The position numbers and the translations under genes were made by a program. A stretch of DNA of 64,000 nt from Peptostreptococcus equinus (GTDB lineage: Bacteria; Bacillota; Clostridia; Peptostreptococcales; Peptostreptococcaceae), in assembly GCF_027125355.1 (NCBI RefSeq), contig NZ_CP114052.1, forward strand, positions 1,736,001 to 1,800,000, in the 5' to 3' direction. Of this stretch, positions 10,176-19,542 are shown piece by piece. The notes under the pieces were generated by a model. That model was not told where the DNA came from. It made no database searches and worked only from the letters and a program-made list of their open reading frames with translations. The stretch's first letter is position 1, and each line of letters starts with the position of its first letter.

Positions 10176-10961
10176 CTAAATAATATGTACAGCCTTTAGT
10201 TCTTTTACTATACTAGCTGCTACTTCTTTTTCAGTTCCTTCTAAGATTACTCCCTGTCCCTTTACTTCTGGCGTAAATGATTTAAACACCCTTGTAGGTG
10301 ATGCTTTTAATCCAACCTGAGTAGGTTCAATATCCACATCATTGATTGAAAGTACTTTTATATCTTTTTTATAGGCATCAAATATTTTATCTATGTACAT
10401 ATGTCTTGGTTCGTTAAGTTCCTTAACCGCTGTTAGAAGAGCTGGCATCTGTAATTCTATCATTTCATATCCATCTTCTAACTGTCTTTTTACAGTAAGT
10501 TTATTTCCATCAACCTTTATGTCTTCAACATAAGTCACTTGAGGTATATCAAGTTTTTCAGATATCTGAGGTCCAACCTGAGCTGTATCTCCATCTATAG
10601 CCTGTCTACCTGCAAATATTATGTCATAATCTCCTATTGCCCTTATTCCAGCTGCAATTGCATTTGAAGTTGCCCATGTATCTGATCCACCAAAAGCTCT
10701 ATCACTTAATAATATAGCTTCATCTGCACCCATAGCTAGGCATTCTCTTAACATTACATCCGCTTGAGGAGGCCCCATTGATATTACAGTTACATGAACA
10801 TCTTCATTTTTATCCTTTAAGGCTAAAGCTGCTTCTAGCGCATTAGCATCATCTGGATTTAATATACTTGGAACTCCTTCTCTAATTAGTGTATTCGTCT
10901 TCTTGTCTATTTTTACTTCAGTTGTATCTGGTACTTGTTTAGCGCATACTATGACCTTCAA
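10176..10961 (-). CDS. etfB: Electron transfer flavoprotein, beta subunit
   Basis: EtfB of 261 residues beginning '[12 protein letters not shown]', a standard EtfB N-terminus. '[16 protein letters not shown]' is the conserved nucleotide/flavin-binding loop. The only suited start is a TTG at 10961, 15 bases after the acyl-CoA dehydrogenase stop; no ATG is near the N-terminus. The uncommon start may set its translation level. It forms a heterodimer with EtfA, whose gene follows at once. Confidence 0.95.
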
Positions 10962-10976
10962 ATTTCACACCGTCCT

Positions 10977-12119
10977 CTACTTTAATAATTTTCCTGCTAT
11001 TACTATCTGCTGAACCTGAGATGTACCTTCATATATTGAAAGTATTCTAGCATCTCTATATATTCTTTCTATTCTGTAGTCCTTAACAAATCCGTAACCA
11101 CCATGTAACTGTAGTGCCTTATATGCTACTTCATTTGCTATTTCTGCTGCGTAGTATTTAGCCATTGAAGACATTATAGCTGGACTCTGTCCTGCATCCT
11201 TCATCTGTGCTCCCTGATATACTAATAATCTAGCTGCTTCTACTTTTGTAGCCATATCAGCTATTGTAAACTGAGTATTCTGGAAAGCTGAAAGTGTTCT
11301 ACCAAATTGAACTCTTTCCTTAGTGTATTTTATAGCTTCATCTAAAGCTGATTGTGCAACACCAACAGCTTGAGCTGCAACACCTATTCTACCTGCTTCT
11401 AATGTATTCATCATTACTCCAAATCCTTTGCCTAACTTACCAAGTAAGTTTTCCTTTGGAACCTTGACGTTTTCAAATATAAGGTCAGATGTTCTTGTAC
11501 CTCTGATACCCATTTTATCTTCATGAGCTCCATGAGAGAATCCTTCCCATTTTGCTTCTACTATGAAAGTAGAGATACCTTTTGTACCTTTGCCTTTTTC
11601 TGTTACCGCTGAAACTATAGCAAAGTCACAGAATGGAGCATTTGTTATCCAACACTTTCTACCATTCAAGATATAATAATCTCCATCTAATTCTGCAGTA
11701 GTCTGTGTTGCACCAGCATCTGATCCTGCACCTGGTTCAGTAAGACCAAAAGCACCTACCATTGTACCTTCAGCTAAAGGTTTTAAATACTTTTCTTTTT
11801 GTTCTTCTGTACCAAAGTTTATAAGTGGTAATGCAACTAATGAAGCACCTGCTGTTACGTAAGTACCACAAGATGCATCTGCTCTTGATAATTCTTCCAT
11901 TATTAGAGCATATGATACATAATCTGCACCAGCTCCACCATATTCTTTTGGAACTATTGGGCAAGAGAACTTATATTTAGCTAGTTTATCTACAAATTCC
12001 TTAGGCATTTCAACGCCTTCTCTGTCCATTTTTTCAGCTAAATCAGTATCATATAATTCACGCTGGCAAAAATCACTAATTGATTTTTTTACTAATTCAT
12101 GCTCTTTATTTAGTATCAT
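10977..12119 (-). CDS. Acyl-CoA dehydrogenase (enoyl-CoA reductase of the reductive branch)
   Basis: A 380-residue full-length acyl-CoA dehydrogenase. The FAD/substrate motifs 'FGLTEPGAGSDAGA' and 'YILNGRKCWITNA', the FAD-binding 'RVQFGRTLSAFQNTQF' and the C-terminal 'QLHGGYGFVKDYRIERIYRDARILSIYEGTS' block are visible; the last holds the catalytic glutamate region (segments quoted in part). With EtfAB it reduces the 2-enoyl-CoA made by the dehydratase to the saturated acyl-CoA, as AcdB does in C. difficile leucine reduction. It sits directly between the dehydratase subunits and etfBA in one run of genes. Substrate specificity (isocaprenoyl-, cinnamoyl- or indoleacryloyl-CoA) is undetermined. 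Confidence 0.93.
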   Translation of the reverse strand: MILNKEHELVKKSISDFCQRELYDTDLAEKMDREGVEMPKEFVDKLAKYKFSCPIVPKEYGGAGADYVSYALIMEELSRADASCGTYVTAGASLVALPLINFGTEEQKEKYLKPLAEGTMVGAFGLTEPGAGSDAGATQTTAELDGDYYILNGRKCWITNAPFCDFAIVSAVTEKGKGTKGISTFIVEAKWEGFSHGAHEDKMGIRGTRTSDLIFENVKVPKENLLGKLGKGFGVMMNTLEAGRIGVAAQAVGVAQSALDEAIKYTKERVQFGRTLSAFQNTQFTIADMATKVEAARLLVYQGAQMKDAGQSPAIMSSMAKYYAAEIANEVAYKALQLHGGYGFVKDYRIERIYRDARILSIYEGTSQVQQIVIAGKLLK

Positions 12120-12140: not shown

Positions 12141-13262
12141 TTACGCTAAGATTTCAGCGAATGTTTGAATTCTTGTTCTTATTTGTTCTATACTAGTCGT
12201 TCCTTGTTCTATTTCTATATACAGATGAGGCATACCTGCATCTTCCATATCTTTCTTGAATAGAGGATAATCATATTCTTCTGGATCACAGAATTTCATA
12301 AGTGCGTAAATTACCCCCTCAGCACCATGTTTCTTCGCATCTTCTAGTACCATTTTTCCTCTTAATTTCTTAGGATCATAAGCTAGTGAACATCCTTCAA
12401 TTTCAGACCACTGCTTAGCAAGTCTTTCAATAGCATTAGATCCTTCTGGTACTAGTGTTCTAAACTGTCTAGTTTCTTGGGCGATATTATCGTAAACTAT
12501 AGCTATGTTGTTTTCTTCTAGAGCTTTTAATACTTCTTTGTCATCAAGTATTATTCCAGAAGTAACCACTTTCTTTCCCTTGAAATCTTCTTTTGGCATT
12601 TCTTTAAGTGCTTCTATTAGTTCTTTAACTAATTTTGTATGTTCTTCTTTCTTCATAAAGTGTCCACTCTTTATTACTACATTTCTATAGTAAGGAGTAA
12701 ATGTGTTTAGATAATTTGGAACTATCTCAACAAATTCTTGCATAACTTTTCTATGTTCATTGTATATATCTATACTATTTAATAGTGATTCTTCAGTAAT
12801 TTCATGACCACAAATATCTTCCATTTTTTTCTTTATATCTGTATATTCATCTGCTAGAAAATCAACACCCGCTTGAATTTTTCTACTTTGAGGATATGTT
12901 AATCCAATCATAGGTATTTTAACTCCAGATTTCCATATCTGTGACATAGTGATTAAAGTATCACACATACCTGGTATTATTACAGCTGATAATCCATCAT
13001 AGCTTCCCTTTAGCCCGAATTCTAAAGTTGATTGCATAATTGAACATGCAAAAGCTGGAAAGTATTGTTTTGCTTTTTCGATTTCAGTATTTCCACCCCA
13101 AATTGCCATTGGTACCATTCCAGCTGCATGAATTATTTCTTCTGGAGTATACACAGGTAGGCAGCCTACAACTTTTTCTCCTGCATTTAGATAATCCTTC
13201 ATCATTTCTTTTGGATTATTTGATACATGTTCTAATTTTGAAATTATATCATTTAAAGTCAT
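12141..13262 (-). CDS. fldC: (R)-2-hydroxyacyl-CoA dehydratase, beta-type subunit
   Basis: A 373-residue 2-hydroxyacyl-CoA dehydratase D-component subunit (HadC/FldC type). Motifs '[19 protein letters not shown]' and 'MAIWGG' carry the first cluster-ligand cysteine; further conserved cysteines are in '[12 protein letters not shown]' and '[10 protein letters not shown]'. It holds an oxygen-sensitive [4Fe-4S] cluster and, with its partner, removes water from (R)-2-hydroxyacyl-CoA by a ketyl-radical mechanism (family knowledge). The start ATG shares one base with the stop of the preceding subunit (TAATG), indicating translational coupling. No activator ATPase gene is interleaved, unlike the had and fld clusters I know. 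Confidence 0.93.
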
Positions 13263-14485
13263 TATTGAGCGCCTCCTTTATTTTTTCTTTCTTCCATAAC
13301 TTCTACTAGACCATCTGCTCTAGTTTCAAACTGTGCCTGTGCAAAGTTTCTTGGGTCAGCTTGATCTCCGTCAAATCCTGCATAAGGAAGACCTGTTTCT
13401 TCAAATACTCTTCTTTGCATTTCGTATTGGACAAAACTCATCAATTTGCAAGATCTATTCATATGGTAGAAGGCACCATCACAGTTACCATCTTTTAGTG
13501 CATTTACTCTGTATTCAACCATTTTTTCTATATTTACATTGTTGAACATTGAACTGTATGCTCTTGCCATTCCATCTAGGTCATTTGCTTCATATACTAA
13601 AGCCCAAGCATGAGGATAAACAGATCCAGTCATATTTACACCCTTCTTAGCAAGAGTTTTCATTTTAAATCCTATTGATGGCCAGCAAGGTATACCTTCC
13701 ATCATTATTCTATACTTTTCTTTACCTCTAAATGAAGATTTACCTTCTTTAGCATTCTGTTCTAATTCTTCTATTAATAACTTAAATGCTTCTGTTGTTT
13801 CTTTCTTACCTCTAGCCGCAACTATTGCCGCCATATAATTGAATAAATCAAAACCATTCATTGGAGACGGGAAGTTTCCTTCTGGAAGGCTCATTGAATA
13901 CTTCCATAACTTACCGTTTTCTGAAGAAATTTTCATTACTTCTTCTAATCTCTTTGGATCAAATTTCTTTCCAGAAATCTTTTCAAATTGCTTTATAGCT
14001 TCTTCAAACTGACCTCTCATGTATTTAACTCTCTTGTCAGATATTTCATATTCGAAATTGTAAGGAGTATCTATCATAATTAATGGTATATCCAATTCTC
14101 TTGATATATTTTCATACCATTTTATAACTTCATTACAGATATTGTTACAACAACATAAAAAATCTGGTTCTGGCATTGGAAGAGCATCTGAATGTCCCTT
14201 TAATAGAACACCAAAGTTTGTTCTAGCATATGCACAAAGGTCATTAGAATATCCTATTCCCTCAGATAATTCGCAAAGCTCTAATGACTCTTTCTTAGCT
14301 GCAACACCTGCTGCATGATTTTCTGGATAAAGCAACTGAAGATCAAATATCTCTGCTAATTCCTGTGGAAAAACAGAAGTAGCCCAACCTATTGGTTTAC
14401 CTGCTTCTTTATCTTTAAATGCGTTGTCATATTGTGCTTGTAACAAATCAGCTATGGCAGTTTTTGCGTCTTTCTTTTGTTCCAT
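13262..14485 (-). CDS. fldB: (R)-2-hydroxyacyl-CoA dehydratase, alpha-type subunit
   Basis: A 407-residue dehydratase subunit (HadB/FldB type). ATG 14485 is preferred: a GGGGGTG stretch lies eight bases upstream, and the GTG at 14494 is part of the same leader. Conserved features include '[28 protein letters not shown]' (quoted in part), '[22 protein letters not shown]', 'CCCNNICN' and '[19 protein letters not shown]', whose cysteines bind the iron-sulfur cluster. It works as a heterodimer with the product of the next gene, which overlaps it by one base. Activity needs one-electron transfer from an ATP-hydrolysing activator that must be encoded elsewhere in this genome. Confidence 0.93.
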
Positions 14486-14527
14486 TTCATACACCCCCGT
14501 CTTGAAATTTATGTTGAAACTTCTATA

Positions 14528-15757
14528 TTATTTATTTATCTTTTGGCAGTCTTTTACTATACCATTTTCCATTAATTTATCAAATTCTGACTGATCTATA
14601 CCTATTTCACTAAGTATTTCTCTTGAATGTTCACCAAATTTAGGAGCTCTAACATATTCTCCTCTCTTGTTTTCAGTAAACATTACTGGAGTATTATATA
14701 TTACACCCTCATGTCCGTTTTCATATGTATGTCTAATCAAGTAATCATTTGCCCAACATTGTTCATCATGCAATACATCTACTGGAGTAGCTAGTTTTTC
14801 GTAAGGTATTCCAGCTTCTTGCAATCTCTCACACCATTCATCACATGGTCTCTTTATAAATTCTTTCTCCATCATATCAACAAATTCTTCCACATAGTTT
14901 ACAGCGCTCTTTAATGTGCTGTACTTACTTCCTATTAAGTCAGGTCTTTCTATAACTTTTTCACAGAAACCTGGGAACCACTTGTCATACTGGAAGAATG
15001 CTATCTGTATCCACTTATCATCTGCACACTTGAAAGTAGTATTTAATGGGTTAGGTGGTTGACGACGAGTTATTGGCATTTCATAACCATAATCAGCTGC
15101 TGATACCATTATACCCATTCCAAATACTGCTGTATGGAATAGTGAAACTGTAACTCTCTCACCCTTGCCTGTCTGTTCTTTCTTTCTTAGAGCTGCTAAT
15201 ATACCAGCTGCTAAACTCATACCTGCATAGTGATCACCAAGCCCTGCTACAGGGTTACATGGAGATGTTCCCTTTTCCATAAGAGACATTGCTACACCAC
15301 CTCTTGCAAAATATGCTGTATAGTCAAATGCTGGATTATCTTTTGCTGGTCCATTTTCTCCATATCCAAGTAAATGAGCAAATATAATATGTGGAGCTCT
15401 TTCTTTTATCGATTCATAGTTTAATCCACTTCTATCAAGTGCTTTTTGTCTAGTATTTGTTAGGAATATGTCAGCTTTATCCAATAATTTATATATAATT
15501 TCAACACCTTCTTTTGATTGAGTGTCTATAACTATATCTTTCTTTCCAGAGTTCTCATTTTCAAACATTGGGTTTTCTTCATCTGTTGCTGGAAAACACC
15601 ACTGAATTCCAACAAATCTCATTGAATCTCCGAATGTTGGTTCAATCTTGATTACTTCAGCCCCCCAATCAGCTAGTAATCTACCGCATACCGGAGCAGC
15701 AACGAAATTTGCATACTCGATAACTCTTACACCTTCTAATGGTAAACCTTTTGACAT
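14528..15757 (-). CDS. fldA: Family III CoA-transferase for 2-hydroxyacids (FldA/HadA type)
   Basis: A 409-residue class III (CaiB/BaiF) CoA-transferase. ATG 15757 is chosen because it follows an AGGAGGTAGAGAA ribosome site; the in-frame upstream extension lacks one. 'LEGVRVIEYANFVAAPVCGRLLADWGAEVIKIE' is the family N-terminus (quoted as LEGVRVIEYANFVAAP and LLADWGAEVIKIE), and 'GLGDHYAGMSLAAG' carries the catalytic aspartate. It loads CoA onto the (R)-2-hydroxyacid using the enoyl- or acyl-CoA product as donor. It is the first gene of the operon and has a sigma-54 promoter about 78 bases upstream. The phenyllactate (FldA) and 2-hydroxyisocaproate (HadA) enzymes are too alike to separate by eye, so the symbol is provisional. 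Confidence 0.88.
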   Translation of the reverse strand: MSKGLPLEGVRVIEYANFVAAPVCGRLLADWGAEVIKIEPTFGDSMRFVGIQWCFPATDEENPMFENENSGKKDIVIDTQSKEGVEIIYKLLDKADIFLTNTRQKALDRSGLNYESIKERAPHIIFAHLLGYGENGPAKDNPAFDYTAYFARGGVAMSLMEKGTSPCNPVAGLGDHYAGMSLAAGILAALRKKEQTGKGERVTVSLFHTAVFGMGIMVSAADYGYEMPITRRQPPNPLNTTFKCADDKWIQIAFFQYDKWFPGFCEKVIERPDLIGSKYSTLKSAVNYVEEFVDMMEKEFIKRPCDEWCERLQEAGIPYEKLATPVDVLHDEQCWANDYLIRHTYENGHEGVIYNTPVMFTENKRGEYVRAPKFGEHSREILSEIGIDQSEFDKLMENGIVKDCQKINK

Positions 15758-15833: not shown

Positions 15834-15849
15834 AGCAACTAATATGCCA
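15834..15849 (-). promoter_or_regulatory. Sigma-54 (-24/-12) promoter of the CoA-transferase/dehydratase operon
   Basis: Read on the minus strand this is TGGCAT-ATTAG-TTGC-T. It matches the consensus TGGCAC-N5-TTGC-W with one transition in the -24 box, and GG and GC are 12 bases apart. It lies about 78 bases before the CoA-transferase ATG, giving a leader of about 66 bases. A sigma-54 activator gene lies less than 4 kb upstream. Confidence 0.85.
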
Positions 15850-16014
15850 ACTTTTAAATTTATATATTTTTTGTTATATTTTTATTTATATCTTTAATTT
15901 AACTATGTTTTAGCTATAATTTTTTATAAATAATATTTTATAAAATTATAAATATAGATCATTATTTTAGTTTATCTTTATTATTTTTTTGCAAAATACA
16001 AATTTTTAACACTA

Positions 16015-16052
16015 AAAAAGATGAGTTAAAAATTAGGCAAACTCATCTTTTT
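16015..16052. terminator. Terminator of the YkvI-family permease gene
   Basis: AAAAAAGATGAGTT-type arms at 16015-16027 and 16039-16052 form a stem with T-runs on both sides, so it can act in both directions. It separates the permease from the operon promoter downstream. The rest of 15850-16253 is AT-rich and may hold activator-binding sites, but I see no clear repeat. Confidence 0.8.
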
Positions 16053-16253
16053 TAAAAAATATTAATGTATTTTAAGCACAAAAACTAATAATATAAAAGA
16101 ACTTTGTTTAATTTTAAACTTTAGAACTTAATATAATTAGTTTTTGCAATCTGCAAATTTTTGCATTATGCGAATTATTTTTTGTTTAAATATAAACTTT
16201 ATATTAAATATATTTACATTTATTTAGCTTTTAAACATTTATTTTGTTTAAAT

Positions 16254-17441
16254 TTACTCACCAGCTTGATCTTCTCCATCTCTAACTCTTTGTGCATGCC
16301 ACTTGTAATCTGGATTTTCTTTTTTAAATTTCCTGTTTTTATATATACCTATTGTTAAGAATGGAACAATTATAGCGAAAATACCTAAATAACCACAATA
16401 CCCATATCCATATTTTACAATATTACTTAATCCAGTTAAAGATAACAATATTGCTACTATCATGATTGCACAAGCTGTGAATATTCTTCTTTTTTGTCTT
16501 GTTTTTAACCACATTAATTTTTTGTAATCTTCAAATCTATTTACTAGTCCATATATGCAAGTAACACCTGTAGATATTAGACATAGTAGTAAAGAAACTT
16601 GATAAGCAACTGCAATAGCTGTACTACCCGTATGCTTAGCTACAAATAAAGTAGGTAATGTCATCTGTCCTGCAGCCTTAAATTCACTAAACCACCCAAG
16701 CAACATAGTTACTGCTAATCCCAGTGCTATTGCATTCATTATAAATGATAAAACCATAGACCAAGTAGCTTCTTTTTCATTGCATATTAGCTCTCTTGAA
16801 GCTGCAGCAAGTGAAGGTATTACTACTGATTGGAAACCTGCATAAGTAAACACTAGTATAAATGGAGTAAGCTTATTTGCACCCCAAAACTCTCTATTTG
16901 TAAGTATTTTAGAAATTTCAGGAGATCTAAGATTTATACCAGTTAAGAAAATAAGTAAACAACATACCAATATAATTATCGACATAATCCCAGCTGCACT
17001 TGAAACAACTAATGCTCCATAAATTGTAAGTATTAACAGTACAAAACCTACTAATAAAACAGCTACAAGATAAGGTACACCCATAGTCTTAAATACTGCA
17101 GCCGCTCCTGCAATTACTGCACTTACTGCAATTATAACCATTAAATAATAATATATCTCCCATAATATTTCTAATTTTGGATATGGATCCCATAATTTAG
17201 TAAATAATTCCTTATAGTTTTTACAGTCATTGTTGTTGTAAAAAACTATCATCTCTCTCATTGTAAAAGTCAATAAGAGCATAGCCAAAATTGCTGTTAG
17301 AGGTGCTGTCCAACCGTACTGAACGTAAAATTGTGTTTCTTGATTTCCCGTTGCAAACCCTCCACCAGCATGTGAACCAAATAAAACTGATGCAACACCA
17401 AATATTGCACCAAGTGATCCGACTCTTTTTGCTTTTTTCAT
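16254..17441 (-). CDS. YkvI-family membrane permease, sigma-54 controlled
   Basis: A 395-residue integral membrane protein with about ten hydrophobic segments. The N-terminal 'GVASVLFGSHAGGGFATGNQETQ' pattern (quoted in part as GSHAGGGFATGNQETQ) resembles YkvI-type members of the APC transporter superfamily. The C-terminus is a short charged tail. It is a paralogue of the plus-strand gene at 26192, which shares the same N-terminal motif. It lies between the sigma-54 activator and the reductive fermentation operon and has its own -24/-12 promoter, so it probably imports the amino acid being fermented (or exports a product). The substrate is not known from sequence. Its ATG is behind a GGGAGG site. 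Confidence 0.82.
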   Translation of the reverse strand: MKKAKRVGSLGAIFGVASVLFGSHAGGGFATGNQETQFYVQYGWTAPLTAILAMLLLTFTMREMIVFYNNNDCKNYKELFTKLWDPYPKLEILWEIYYYLMVIIAVSAVIAGAAAVFKTMGVPYLVAVLLVGFVLLILTIYGALVVSSAAGIMSIIILVCCLLIFLTGINLRSPEISKILTNREFWGANKLTPFILVFTYAGFQSVVIPSLAAASRELICNEKEATWSMVLSFIMNAIALGLAVTMLLGWFSEFKAAGQMTLPTLFVAKHTGSTAIAVAYQVSLLLCLISTGVTCIYGLVNRFEDYKKLMWLKTRQKRRIFTACAIMIVAILLSLTGLSNIVKYGYGYCGYLGIFAIIVPFLTIGIYKNRKFKKENPDYKWHAQRVRDGEDQAGE

Positions 17442-17522
17442 AACACTTTACCTCCCAATAATTATAATAAAATAAATAATTGATAAATAGACACTAAAAA
17501 TAATTATGTCAATATATTATCA

Positions 17523-17538
17523 AGCAATTTTCATGCCA
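17523..17538 (-). promoter_or_regulatory. Sigma-54 (-24/-12) promoter of the permease gene
   Basis: On the minus strand the sequence is TGGCATG-AAAA-TTGC-T, with the exact -24/-12 spacing and only the last base of the -24 box differing from TGGCAC. It lies about 82 bases before the permease ATG. It shares TGGCAT-N5-TTGCT with the site before the CoA-transferase gene. Confidence 0.87.
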
Positions 17539-17599
17539 TATGTTAATTTTTTAAAATTTACCTTTTATCTATAAAAATGTTTTTTTAATAATTATATAA

Positions 17600-17646
17600 A
17601 TAAAAATAACCCTGCAGTTCTCACTTACTACAGAGTTATTTTTATT
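17600..17646 (-). terminator. Terminator of the sigma-54 activator gene
   Basis: A long stem of TAAAAATAAC..CTG and CAG..GTTATTTTTA arms with T-rich flanks, just past the activator stop codon. It insulates the activator from the permease. Confidence 0.7.
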
Positions 17647-17677
17647 TATTCGAATTTTTCATTTTTTATACAACATT

Positions 17678-19372
17678 TTATATTTCTATATATCCACTTT
17701 TTATTTTTCTATAGACTGTTGATGGGTTTATGCCAACAGCTTCTGCTGCTTTTGTAATATTTCCATATTTCGCCACTGCCCTTTTAAGGATTTCCTGCTC
17801 TACTATTCTATGAGCTTCATCTATATTCATAATATTGTCTATGATGATTTTATTGTCAATATCAACTTCTTCACTAGGATTCATAAACTCACAAGTATGG
17901 CACATCCTCTTTTCTTTAAGTGAATCACTTTCTGCTGGAATATTATTCACTTGACCCAAAGCTAAAACTCTCTGAATTTGATCGGAATAAATATTTTCCT
18001 GGGCAGATAGTATCACTAATCTTTCCATTACATTTCTTAGTTCTCTTATATTGCCCTTCCAATCATTGTTCCATAAAATATCCTCTGCTTCAGCTGATAA
18101 TTTTATTTTTCTATTATATCTATTGTTAAAATACTCAATATAATAATTGGCTATTGGAAGTATATCTTCCCTTCTCTCTCTAAGAGGCGGTATTATCAAA
18201 GGTATTACATTTAATCTATAGTATAAATCTTGTCTGAATATTTTTGGATTTTTTAACTCCTCTCCAGTTTTATTGGTAGCACATATATATCTTACATCTA
18301 TCTTTCTAGGTTTAATACCTCCTATTCTGGTTAAGGATGACTCTTGAATAACTCTTAAAAACTTTTTCTGCATTTGTAATGGTAGTTCACCTATTTCATC
18401 CAAAAATAATGTTCCACCATTTGCAGCTTCTATTAAACCTACCTTTCCCTCTTTACTAGCCCCTGTAAAAGCTCCTTTTTCATAACCAAATAATTCAGAC
18501 TCTATAAGTTCAGCAGGTATACTTGCACAATTTATAGCAACAAATGCTTTATCCCTTCTAAGACTTTGATTAAGTACAGTTCTTGCTATTATTTCCTTAC
18601 CTACACCAGATTCACCAACTATAAATATAGGCGCATCTGAAGGTGCAACTCTCTCGATTATACCTTTTACTTTATCAATCTCTTTGCTATTTGATATATA
18701 CTCTACTCTATCATCATTCAGCAAACTGCTTGTCTTAGCTAAATTAATTATTCTAGATACATCTCTTCCAGTCAAAACTCCACCCTTTAATCTTCCTGAG
18801 GAACCAAAAATTGGTATAGCAGTATATGATATGACCTTACCATTTGGATAAGTTATTTCCTTATAAACATTTTTTTTAGTTTCTATCATTTGTGATATTA
18901 TAGGATTTTCTACTTTTTTATCACTAACCAATTGTCTAATGTTTTTTCCTAGAACCTCACTTCTTTTGAATGGTAATATTTGATCACATATACTATTCAT
19001 TCTCTGAAGTACTCCCTTTTCATCAAATATTACCACGATTTCGTCAATATGCTCTATTACATTTGTAATTAGTCTGTCAGATGCAAAATTTTTCTCAAAT
19101 ATATACAATTCATAATCTTGCTCTTCAATATTTACTGCATACATCATGCCTTTTAAAGAAGTTTTTTCAATTTGAAAGTACATAATATTTTCATATTCTG
19201 TAGATACTCTCTTAAAATCGATATCTTCTAATTTTGGAAGTTCATGATTTTCTAAGAATTTATCTATAAAAGACATATGATAATTTCTACATACTATTGA
19301 CGCCCTTTTTTTCCTTAAAAAGCACGGAGTATTTATATTCATAACAATGCTAGTTAATAAGAAATAATTCAT
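17678..19372 (-). CDS. Sigma-54-dependent transcriptional activator (PAS, AAA+, Fis-type HTH)
   Basis: A 564-residue enhancer-binding protein. ATG 19372 is favoured because GGAGGA lies five bases before it; the ATG at 19384 has no ribosome site. Residues 1-105 are an unassigned N-terminal region, then a PAS-like domain at about 105-205 ('DEIVVIFDEKGVLQRMN'). The AAA+ domain has Walker A 'GESGVGKE' near 253-260, the sigma-54-contact loop 'GAFTGA' near 300-305, 'LFLDEIGELPLQMQKKFLRV' and 'GNIRELRNVMERL'. The C-terminus has a helix-turn-helix ('ITKAAEAVGINPSTVYRKI'). It should activate the two -24/-12 promoters just downstream in response to a small-molecule signal, perhaps an amino or keto acid (inference). 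A CHTCEF cysteine pair lies between the AAA+ domain and the HTH. Confidence 0.93.
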   Translation of the reverse strand: MNYFLLTSIVMNINTPCFLRKKRASIVCRNYHMSFIDKFLENHELPKLEDIDFKRVSTEYENIMYFQIEKTSLKGMMYAVNIEEQDYELYIFEKNFASDRLITNVIEHIDEIVVIFDEKGVLQRMNSICDQILPFKRSEVLGKNIRQLVSDKKVENPIISQMIETKKNVYKEITYPNGKVISYTAIPIFGSSGRLKGGVLTGRDVSRIINLAKTSSLLNDDRVEYISNSKEIDKVKGIIERVAPSDAPIFIVGESGVGKEIIARTVLNQSLRRDKAFVAINCASIPAELIESELFGYEKGAFTGASKEGKVGLIEAANGGTLFLDEIGELPLQMQKKFLRVIQESSLTRIGGIKPRKIDVRYICATNKTGEELKNPKIFRQDLYYRLNVIPLIIPPLRERREDILPIANYYIEYFNNRYNRKIKLSAEAEDILWNNDWKGNIRELRNVMERLVILSAQENIYSDQIQRVLALGQVNNIPAESDSLKEKRMCHTCEFMNPSEEVDIDNKIIIDNIMNIDEAHRIVEQEILKRAVAKYGNITKAAEAVGINPSTVYRKIKSGYIEI

Positions 19373-19542
19373 ATCTTCCTCCATTTATTCTGATTAATAA
19401 TTATTTAACATATTGAAGCGAAATAATATTTATTGTAATTTTTCAGATATACTTTAGGTATTTTTTTACTAAATATTAAATTTTATTCAAGTACGTTCAA
19501 AATTTATCAAGATAACCTATTCCTAGTATAACATAAATTTAT

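What the first reader, a model, noticed from the sequence alone, without database searches (positions are those of the whole stretch)
15834..19372. A compact sigma-54 regulon controlling Stickland-type amino acid reduction
Both the permease and the CoA-transferase/dehydratase operon are preceded by near-consensus -24/-12 elements (TGGCAT-N5-TTGCT in each, 12-base spacing exact). A GAFTGA-bearing activator with a PAS-like domain is encoded immediately upstream. The three units are thus a physically linked activator-transporter-pathway set. I do not recall sigma-54 control being a standard description of had/fld operons, so this could be a lineage-specific control circuit that senses the amino or keto acid.
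Basis: partly seen in the sequence, partly recalled or inferred. Interest (0 to 1): 0.8.

Follow-up and report, generated by a model that had tools for sequence, protein, structure and literature searches.

The report
LeuR/sigma-54 leucine-reduction regulon in Peptostreptococcus
An anaerobic Peptostreptococcus seems to switch on its leucine-reducing genes, and a neighbouring transporter, through a special promoter type and an activator already proposed for a related pathogen; what looks new is that the transporter joined the circuit and may share its control sites from downstream.

Summary
In detail: two exact -24/-12 sites precede the permease and the hadA operon, an activator gene (PAS, sigma-54 AAA+, Fis-type HTH) lies just upstream, and the genome has a complete rpoN. 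The operon is had-type (leucine to isocaproate); a separate fld-type operon in this genome has no exact site. I add: a palindromic candidate LeuR site, TTGCA-N3-TGCAA, found with the promoter in 20 of 21 had loci that hold leuR and in 0 of 11 that do not; a Peptostreptococcus layout in which a YkvI-family permease has its own sigma-54 promoter but no such site in the 750 bp upstream (7 of 7); and 2-3 sites between permease and hadA in the same 7 of 7. Best reading: one shared enhancer acting downstream on ykvI and upstream on hadA, as described for B. subtilis rocG/rocABC. That step is inferred, not shown. New variant of a known kind.

The parts
17678..19384 (-). leuR: sigma-54 enhancer-binding activator (orthologue of C. 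difficile LeuR/CD0402); likely start codon at 19372
   Evidence: PAS_9/PAS, Sigma54_activat, AAA_lid_14, HTH_8; clade of 16 LeuR sequences apart from 7 other activators, support 100/99; 47-52% identity to the Clostridioides-type LeuR that sits beside hadAIBC
17595..17650 (-). terminator-like hairpin after leuR
   Evidence: dG -26.8 kcal/mol, z -9.25; not found by the tool's terminator scan
17523..17538 (-). -24/-12 promoter of the ykvI permease, TGGCATGAAAATTGCT
   Evidence: exact match; present in 7 of 7 permease-bearing Peptostreptococcus (6 exact, 1 with one mismatch), 2-140 bp after the leuR stop
16254..17441 (-). YkvI-family permease, APC/LeuT-type fold
   Evidence: P. faecalis orthologue named 'YkvI family membrane protein' by its source; no Pfam match over cut-off; AlphaFold2 pLDDT 86.9; Foldseek rows are Nramp, BasC, LeuT, LAT and similar structures, E 1e-5 to 5e-4 in the 50 rows shown
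16160..16174 (.). candidate LeuR site 1 (distal pair), TTTGCATTATGCGAA
16143..16157 (.). candidate LeuR site 2 (distal pair), TTTGCAATCTGCAAA
   Evidence: the only exact TTTGCAN3TGCAAA in this 2.0-Mb genome
16005..16070 (-). terminator-like hairpin between ykvI and hadA
   Evidence: dG -17.9, z -6.2; a hairpin with T-rich tail stands between distal and proximal sites in 6 of 7 genomes; in strain MV1 the best one was weak and elsewhere
15988..16002 (.). candidate LeuR site 3 (proximal), TTTGCAAAATACAAA (1 mismatch)
15834..15849 (-). -24/-12 promoter of the had operon, TGGCATATTAGTTGCT
   Evidence: exact match; at most 1 mismatch in all 8 leuR-bearing Peptostreptococcus examined, own genome included
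14528..15757 (-). hadA, family III CoA-transferase (likely start at 15757; longest ORF to 15808)
   Evidence: PF02515, E 9e-86; 53% to Clostridioides HadA, 41% to own FldA
13262..14494 (-). hadB, 2-hydroxyisocaproyl-CoA dehydratase alpha
   Evidence: NCBIfam NF052455 762.6 bits, cut-off 750; PDB 3o3m_A E 1e-215
12141..13262 (-). hadC, dehydratase beta
   Evidence: best NCBIfam match NF052456, 600 bits, below its cut-off of 700; 60.5% to Clostridioides HadC, 43.6% to own FldC
10977..12119 (-). acdB, acyl-CoA dehydrogenase
   Evidence: 69% to Clostridioides AcdB
10176..10961 (-). etfB
   Evidence: PF01012
9139..10176 (-). etfA
   Evidence: PF01012, PF00766
7941..8942 (-). ldhA-like D-2-hydroxyacid dehydrogenase, last gene of the cluster
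   Evidence: PF02826/PF00389; same position in the 7 named Peptostreptococcus had loci

Best explanation
This is the Peptostreptococcus form of the LeuR regulon. LeuR, probably controlled by ligand or redox binding in its PAS region, binds palindromes TTGCA-N3-TGCAA in the ykvI-hadA intergenic region. By DNA looping and ATP hydrolysis it opens sigma-54 RNA polymerase at two -24/-12 promoters: one upstream-type target (hadA-hadBC-acdB-etfBA-ldhA, reductive leucine to isocaproate branch) and one downstream-type target (the ykvI permease, whose promoter lies about 1.3 kb before the sites). Shown by sequence: promoters, activator orthology, rpoN, sites, pathway type. Published for a relative: sigma-54 dependence of hadA in C. 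difficile. Inferred: that LeuR binds these sites, the looping to ykvI from downstream, the effector, the permease's substrate. The confidence given is for the LeuR/sigma-54 control of the had operon; the ykvI part is at about 0.5 (see novel case).
For: Promoters and activator; rpoN. LeuR orthology by tree and synteny. Of 33 had loci (own window plus 32 fetched; 1 undecidable at a contig end, dropped), a promoter with at most 1 mismatch is found in 20 of 21 that hold leuR and in 0 of 11 that do not, and a candidate LeuR site in 20 of 21 against 0 of 11 (Fisher 9e-8, but rows are related). The one miss, L164, has two sites and a one-mismatch promoter before an extra gene at the operon head. In the own genome 3 of 22 positions with at most 1 mismatch lie in the single ykvI-hadA gap. 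ykvI promoter in 7 of 7, with no site in the 750 bp upstream of ykvI in 7 of 7. Layout of site pair, hairpin, proximal site, promoter in 6 of 7. P. russellii Calf135 lacks both had operon and LeuR orthologue. C. difficile data: PMC6615313, PMC7438776. rocG precedent: PMC4941409 passages.
Against: No expression or binding data were found for this genus. Nie's LeuR motif letters are not in the text I could read, so I cannot say that my palindrome is theirs. A weight matrix trained on the non-Peptostreptococcus sites scored two of the window's sites only 5.5-6.1 (the third is not in its top 20), below chance maxima (mean 14.2 per 64 kb): core palindrome conserved, flanking bases not. Lone one-mismatch sites also occur elsewhere (window 23515; one in the P. 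anaerobius locus). ykvI may be controlled otherwise: sigma-A-like matches are plentiful (37 against 27.8 in shuffles), and the close Clostridioides orthologue has no exact sigma-54 site. 'Without leuR' means not in the fetched stretch (up to 10 kb each side); 4 of those 11 genomes have rpoN over the cut-off, and 1 of 5 checked leuR-bearing genomes, MAG UBA6806, shows none.
Confidence: 0.85

Rival explanations
1. LeuR controls only the had operon; the -24/-12 site before ykvI is served by a different activator or by LeuR from solution without binding sites.
For: No LeuR-type site within 750 bp upstream of ykvI in 7 of 7 genomes; four other activators exist in the genome; the Clostridioides orthologue of this permease shows no LeuR-type site or exact sigma-54 site.
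Against: Each of the other four activators has its own adjacent sigma-54 site; ykvI lies between leuR and the candidate LeuR sites in 7 of 8 leuR-bearing Peptostreptococcus; more distant YkvI relatives sit in had operons of other lineages, and in Proteocatella a ykvI-type gene is the first gene behind LeuR-type sites and a sigma-54 promoter.
Confidence: 0.35
2. The -24/-12 matches are chance and both units use ordinary sigma-A promoters.
For: Many sigma-70-like matches in this AT-rich region (37 against 27.8 in shuffles); about 6.5 exact -24/-12 matches would be expected genome-wide by scaling.
Against: Only 2 exact matches in 64 kb, both just before the predicted targets of an adjacent activator; present in 7 of 7 and 8 of 8 relatives where the surrounding non-coding sequence is poorly conserved; SigL dependence of the C. 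difficile orthologue.
Confidence: 0.03
3. The operon is an fld-type aromatic pathway rather than a leucine pathway.
For: P. anaerobius makes 3-phenylpropionate (PMC9241533 passages); HadC falls below its NCBIfam cut-off; hadI is missing from the operon.
Against: HadB passes the 2-hydroxyisocaproyl-CoA dehydratase equivalog cut-off; HadA/B/C are 53/77/60% to Clostridioides Had but 41/49/44% to the genome's own Fld paralogues; an fld-type cluster lies at 457.8-471.0 kb; P. anaerobius consumes leucine and makes isocaproate.
Confidence: 0.06

Closest known systems
C. difficile LeuR/SigL control of hadAIBC-acdB-etfBA (PMC6615313, PMC7438776)
   Same: Orthologous activator, sigma-54 promoter before hadA, same pathway genes, activator gene adjacent.
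   Different: Activator gene upstream instead of downstream; YkvI permease in between with its own sigma-54 promoter; hadI missing from the operon; ldhA at the operon end; in most species a site pair 17-19 bp apart plus a third site, instead of one or two sites.
B. subtilis rocG-rocABC shared enhancer (RocR), as told in PMC4941409 (passages)
   Same: One activator-binding intergenic region lies 3' of one sigma-54 gene (about 1.3-1.5 kb from its promoter) and 5' of the next sigma-54 operon.
   Different: Different activator and pathway; here only predicted.
Proteocatella sphenisci had locus (L150)
   Same: leuR, LeuR-type sites, sigma-54 promoter, a ykvI-type gene, then had genes.
   Different: There the sites and a single exact promoter precede ykvI, which heads the operon; hadI is kept; the permease is only 37% identical.

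Membership tests
LeuR regulon | Activator orthologous to LeuR | tested here: met
   Tree clade 100/99, 47-52% identity, synteny with had genes
LeuR regulon | -24/-12 promoter before hadA | tested here: met
   15834-15849, exact
LeuR regulon | Candidate upstream activator sites before the promoter | tested here: met
   Three sites at 15988-16174; identity with the published LeuR motif could not be checked
LeuR regulon | Transcription depends on LeuR and sigma-54 | not testable with these tools
   Needs mutants; known for sigL in C. difficile
sigma-54-dependent system | rpoN in the genome | tested here: met
   448 aa with AID, CBD, DBD
sigma-54-dependent system | Activator with AAA+ sigma-54 interaction domain and GAFTGA loop | tested here: met
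   PF00158 E 8.5e-64; GAFTGA
had (leucine to isocaproate) operon | hadA, hadB, hadC, acdB, etfBA present and had-type | tested here: met
   caveat: HadC 600 bits against cut-off 700
had (leucine to isocaproate) operon | Own activase hadI in the operon | tested here: not met
   Absent from the operon; closest activase in the genome is FldI, 53.9% to HadI, in the fld-type cluster
rocG-type downstream enhancer (for ykvI) | No activator site upstream of the promoter | tested here: met
   0 sites with at most 1 mismatch in 750 bp upstream of ykvI, 7 of 7 Peptostreptococcus
rocG-type downstream enhancer (for ykvI) | Activator site 3' of the gene drives its promoter | tested here: inconclusive
   Sites lie 3' of ykvI in 7 of 7; function not testable here
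fld (aromatic) operon | fld-type dehydratase | tested here: not met
   44-49% (HadC, HadB) to own Fld paralogues against 60-77% to Clostridioides Had

The most novel reading that the evidence does not exclude
In Peptostreptococcus a single LeuR enhancer between ykvI and hadA drives two sigma-54 promoters in opposite geometries: had from upstream and, about 1.3 kb away, ykvI from downstream. It would be an independent evolution of the rocG-type downstream enhancer, created when a permease that lies outside the regulon in Clostridioides came to stand between activator gene and enhancer.
Probability: 0.5. Interest if true: 0.5.

Novelty: new variant of a known kind. Interest (0 to 1): 0.38.

Why it matters
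It carries a control circuit proposed in C. difficile into Peptostreptococcus (a genus of human commensals, recalled) and several other lineages, supplies a concrete candidate binding sequence for LeuR, and offers seven natural examples of what looks like a downstream bacterial enhancer. It predicts which Peptostreptococcus make isocaproate from leucine (for example not P. russellii Calf135) and suggests that the leucine dehydratase borrows the activase of the aromatic branch, tying the two pathways together.

Tried and rejected
Rejected: chance promoters; an fld assignment; further LeuR targets in the own genome. None of the other 19 positions that match TTTGCAN3TGCRAA with at most 1 mismatch lies within 1 kb of any of the 14 promoter matches (positions compared). 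In the genus, the 5 exact TTTGCAN3TGCAAA sites outside had loci lie inside ORFs 4 times and once upstream of a 204-aa ORF (RuvA by my reading of its sequence) with no sigma-54 site beside it. Two of the 9 genomes have no exact site at all (P. canis, strain D1); theirs carry one mismatch.

Led nowhere: a weight matrix from the non-Peptostreptococcus sites did not single out the window's sites; the fold search with the LeuR model returned, in the 50 rows shown, sigma-54 activators matched through their AAA+ part, so the fold of residues 1-96, which looks PAS-like in the secondary structure, stays unproven, and the effector unknown; the permease fold is APC/LeuT-type but gives no substrate; the tool's terminator scan missed both hairpins, which folding found; a paper search for YkvI listed nothing on its function that I opened (listing only). 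In the LeuR tree 8 outside activators were tried from loci L025-L032 and only the 4 with a GAFTGA-bearing ORF went in, besides 3 from the own genome. PMC8473912 was searched for passages and not used.
Full report
What is there. The window is C1:1736001-1800000 of a 1,995,029-base single-contig genome. The genus is therefore Peptostreptococcus; the species was not determined. On the minus strand the order is secA, leuR, ykvI, hadA, hadB, hadC, acdB, etfB, etfA, ldhA (secA named from its sequence, recalled). Hairpins follow leuR (dG -26.8, z -9.3) and lie between ykvI and hadA (dG -17.9, z -6.2), which fits three transcription units.

Promoters. The two -24/-12 elements are the only exact TGGCAY-N5-WTGCW matches in 64 kb (0.21 expected). 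Genome-wide there are 14; all 5 genes that encode sigma-54 activators (four ordinary ones and one PRD/LevR type; 3 further weak AAA matches are left out) have one nearby, and leuR has two. By neighbourhood the other sets look like cysteine desulfidase, proline reductase (prdA), a dihydropyrimidine dehydrogenase-like set and a PTS; these names rest on domains, my reading of the sequences and recalled C. difficile parallels. One further site, at C1:1810442, precedes a CoA-transferase gene by 463 bp without an adjacent activator. RpoN is complete.

Who is the activator. The best full-length relatives of the activator in other genera of the family (50-52%) are genes beside hadA-hadI-hadB-hadC-acdB-etfB-etfA. 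A tree puts 16 LeuR sequences in one clade (100/99) apart from 7 other activators (outgroup branches are long). In Peptostreptococcus the gene stands upstream of the targets, in Clostridioides downstream.

What is known. I read passages, an abstract and one section of two papers. PMC6615313 predicts LeuR/sigma-54 control of the operon in C. difficile and reports gel shifts of C. beijerinckii SigL on the hadA fragment; its Table 1 lists LeuR for Clostridioides only, and its main text does not hold the word Peptostreptococcus. PMC7438776 lists the promoter among those with mapped starts and reports <0.001 expression of hadA in the sigL mutant and a strong drop of isocaproic acid. So sigma-54 control of had genes is not new. 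My searches for Peptostreptococcus with sigma-54 and Stickland terms and for LeuR listed no study of this circuit in this genus; they cover only the open-licence library.

Candidate LeuR site. Upstream of hadA in leuR-bearing lineages I saw palindromes TTGCA-N3-TGCAA. I examined 33 had loci: the window and 32 loci with HadB at least 69% identical (of 80 fetched; the other 48 are at most 56% identical and were not scored). One (L157) ends before leuR would appear and was dropped. With leuR in the stretch, 20 of 21 have a promoter with at most 1 mismatch (19 of 21 strict) and 20 of 21 have at least one site; without, 0 of 11 and 0 of 11. The exception L164 carries two sites and a one-mismatch promoter before an extra gene that heads its operon. 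leuR could lie elsewhere in some of the 11 genomes. The rows are related, so the Fisher value (9e-8) overstates independence. In the own genome 22 positions match TTTGCA-N3-TGCRAA with at most 1 mismatch, and 3 of them lie in this one gap (the backward control gave 4 strand-matches against 39, but it holds CpG and is a weak control); in the window 6 strand-matches against 1.23 expected, reached by 2 of 100 shuffles. Against: a matrix trained on the other lineages does not single out the window's sites, so the flanks differ between lineages.

The permease puzzle. In 7 of 7 Peptostreptococcus that carry ykvI here, a sigma-54 promoter follows the leuR stop by 2-140 bp (6 exact, P. anaerobius with 1 mismatch) and is, by eye, the main block conserved outside coding sequence. 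No candidate LeuR site lies within 750 bp upstream of ykvI in 7 of 7. In all 7, two or three sites lie between ykvI and hadA; in 6 of 7 as a pair 17-19 bp apart plus one 145-170 bp further on (the middle site of P. faecalis has 2 mismatches; in strain MV1 two sites were found), and in 6 of 7 a hairpin stands between pair and proximal site. P. russellii RT-10B has leuR and had but no ykvI there. In the Clostridioides genus the orthologous permease (66-69%) is unlinked to had, without LeuR-type site or exact promoter in the fetched 4-kb stretches, 8 of 8. B. subtilis rocG offers the mechanism: the RocR-binding region between rocG and rocABC serves rocG from 1.5 kb downstream and rocABC from upstream (PMC4941409 passages). 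I therefore propose a shared enhancer, at about even odds for the ykvI part.

Pathway. HadB passes its NCBIfam equivalog cut-off; HadA, HadB and HadC are closer to Clostridioides Had (53, 77, 60%) than to the genome's own Fld paralogues (41, 49, 44%). The fld-type cluster (AMP-ligase, FldA, FldI, FldB, FldC, AcdA, EtfBA, dehydrogenase, BrnQ-type carrier, an ORF I read as an aminotransferase, with a GntR regulator upstream) has no exact sigma-54 site (fld names by similarity and recall). hadI is missing from the had operon; the nearest activase is FldI, 53.9% to HadI, so FldI probably activates both dehydratases (inference). P. anaerobius consumes leucine and makes isocaproate and 3-phenylpropionate (PMC9241533 passages).

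Evolution. HadA of Peptostreptococcus groups with the Peptoniphilus/Lachnoanaerobaculum type (100/100), while HadB and HadC do not, which points to a replaced hadA. The LeuR-bearing locus of Gallibacter (another family) is close to that of Peptostreptococcus, which suggests transfer. YkvI-like genes at 31-37% recur in had loci without leuR: 8 of those 11 (C. pascui, Tissierellia MAG, E. yurii, three Lachnoanaerobaculum, Pseudoramibacter, one Peptoniphilus), plus a closer one (67%) in MAG L145. This supports a transport role tied to this pathway. rpoN was found over the cut-off in 4 of the 11 genomes without leuR in the stretch, and in 4 of 5 checked with it.

Verdict. What remains of interest is the extension to new lineages, a testable binding motif, the shared activase, and above all the possible downstream enhancer for the permease.

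Noticed in passing
G000:C1:457800-471007 (L134:2800-16007): fld-type aromatic reduction cluster with its own activase, dehydrogenase, BrnQ-type carrier and an aminotransferase-like ORF, next to a GntR regulator and with no exact sigma-54 site.
   Followed up: partly
window:9139-15808: The had operon lacks hadI; in P. russellii RT-10B and Gallibacter a HadI gene (60-62%) stands at the operon end, in the other named Peptostreptococcus had loci none is seen.
   Followed up: partly
window:14528-15757: The HadA tree conflicts with the HadB and HadC trees: Peptostreptococcus HadA is of the Peptoniphilus/Lachnoanaerobaculum type, suggesting gene replacement.
   Followed up: partly
L076:5245-7740 (G000:C1:1298245-1300740): Behind the presumed proline-reductase sigma-54 promoter a 142-aa ORF begins like the following 644-aa PrdA-like ORF (43 of the first 45 residues the same, all that I saw); looks like a partial duplication.
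   Followed up: no
LeuR rows and alignment A2: Only 6 of 16 LeuR sequences have a canonical GAFTGA loop; others read GSFTGA, GAFSGA, GTFTGA or GAFTGS.
   Followed up: no
   Followed up: no
L078:5948-8962 (G000:C1:20948-23962): The N-terminus of the LevR-type activator matches the Sigma54_DBD profile (25.2 bits, cut-off 22.8), an unexpected domain for an activator.
   Followed up: no
window:26123-27385: A second YkvI-like permease gene (27% identical to the first) on the other strand; a 73% identical gene stands near the locus in P. porci and strain D1.
   Followed up: no
L079:7442-7457 (G000:C1:1810442): An exact -24/-12 site 463 bp upstream of a 516-aa CoA-transferase gene with no activator gene adjacent.
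   Followed up: no
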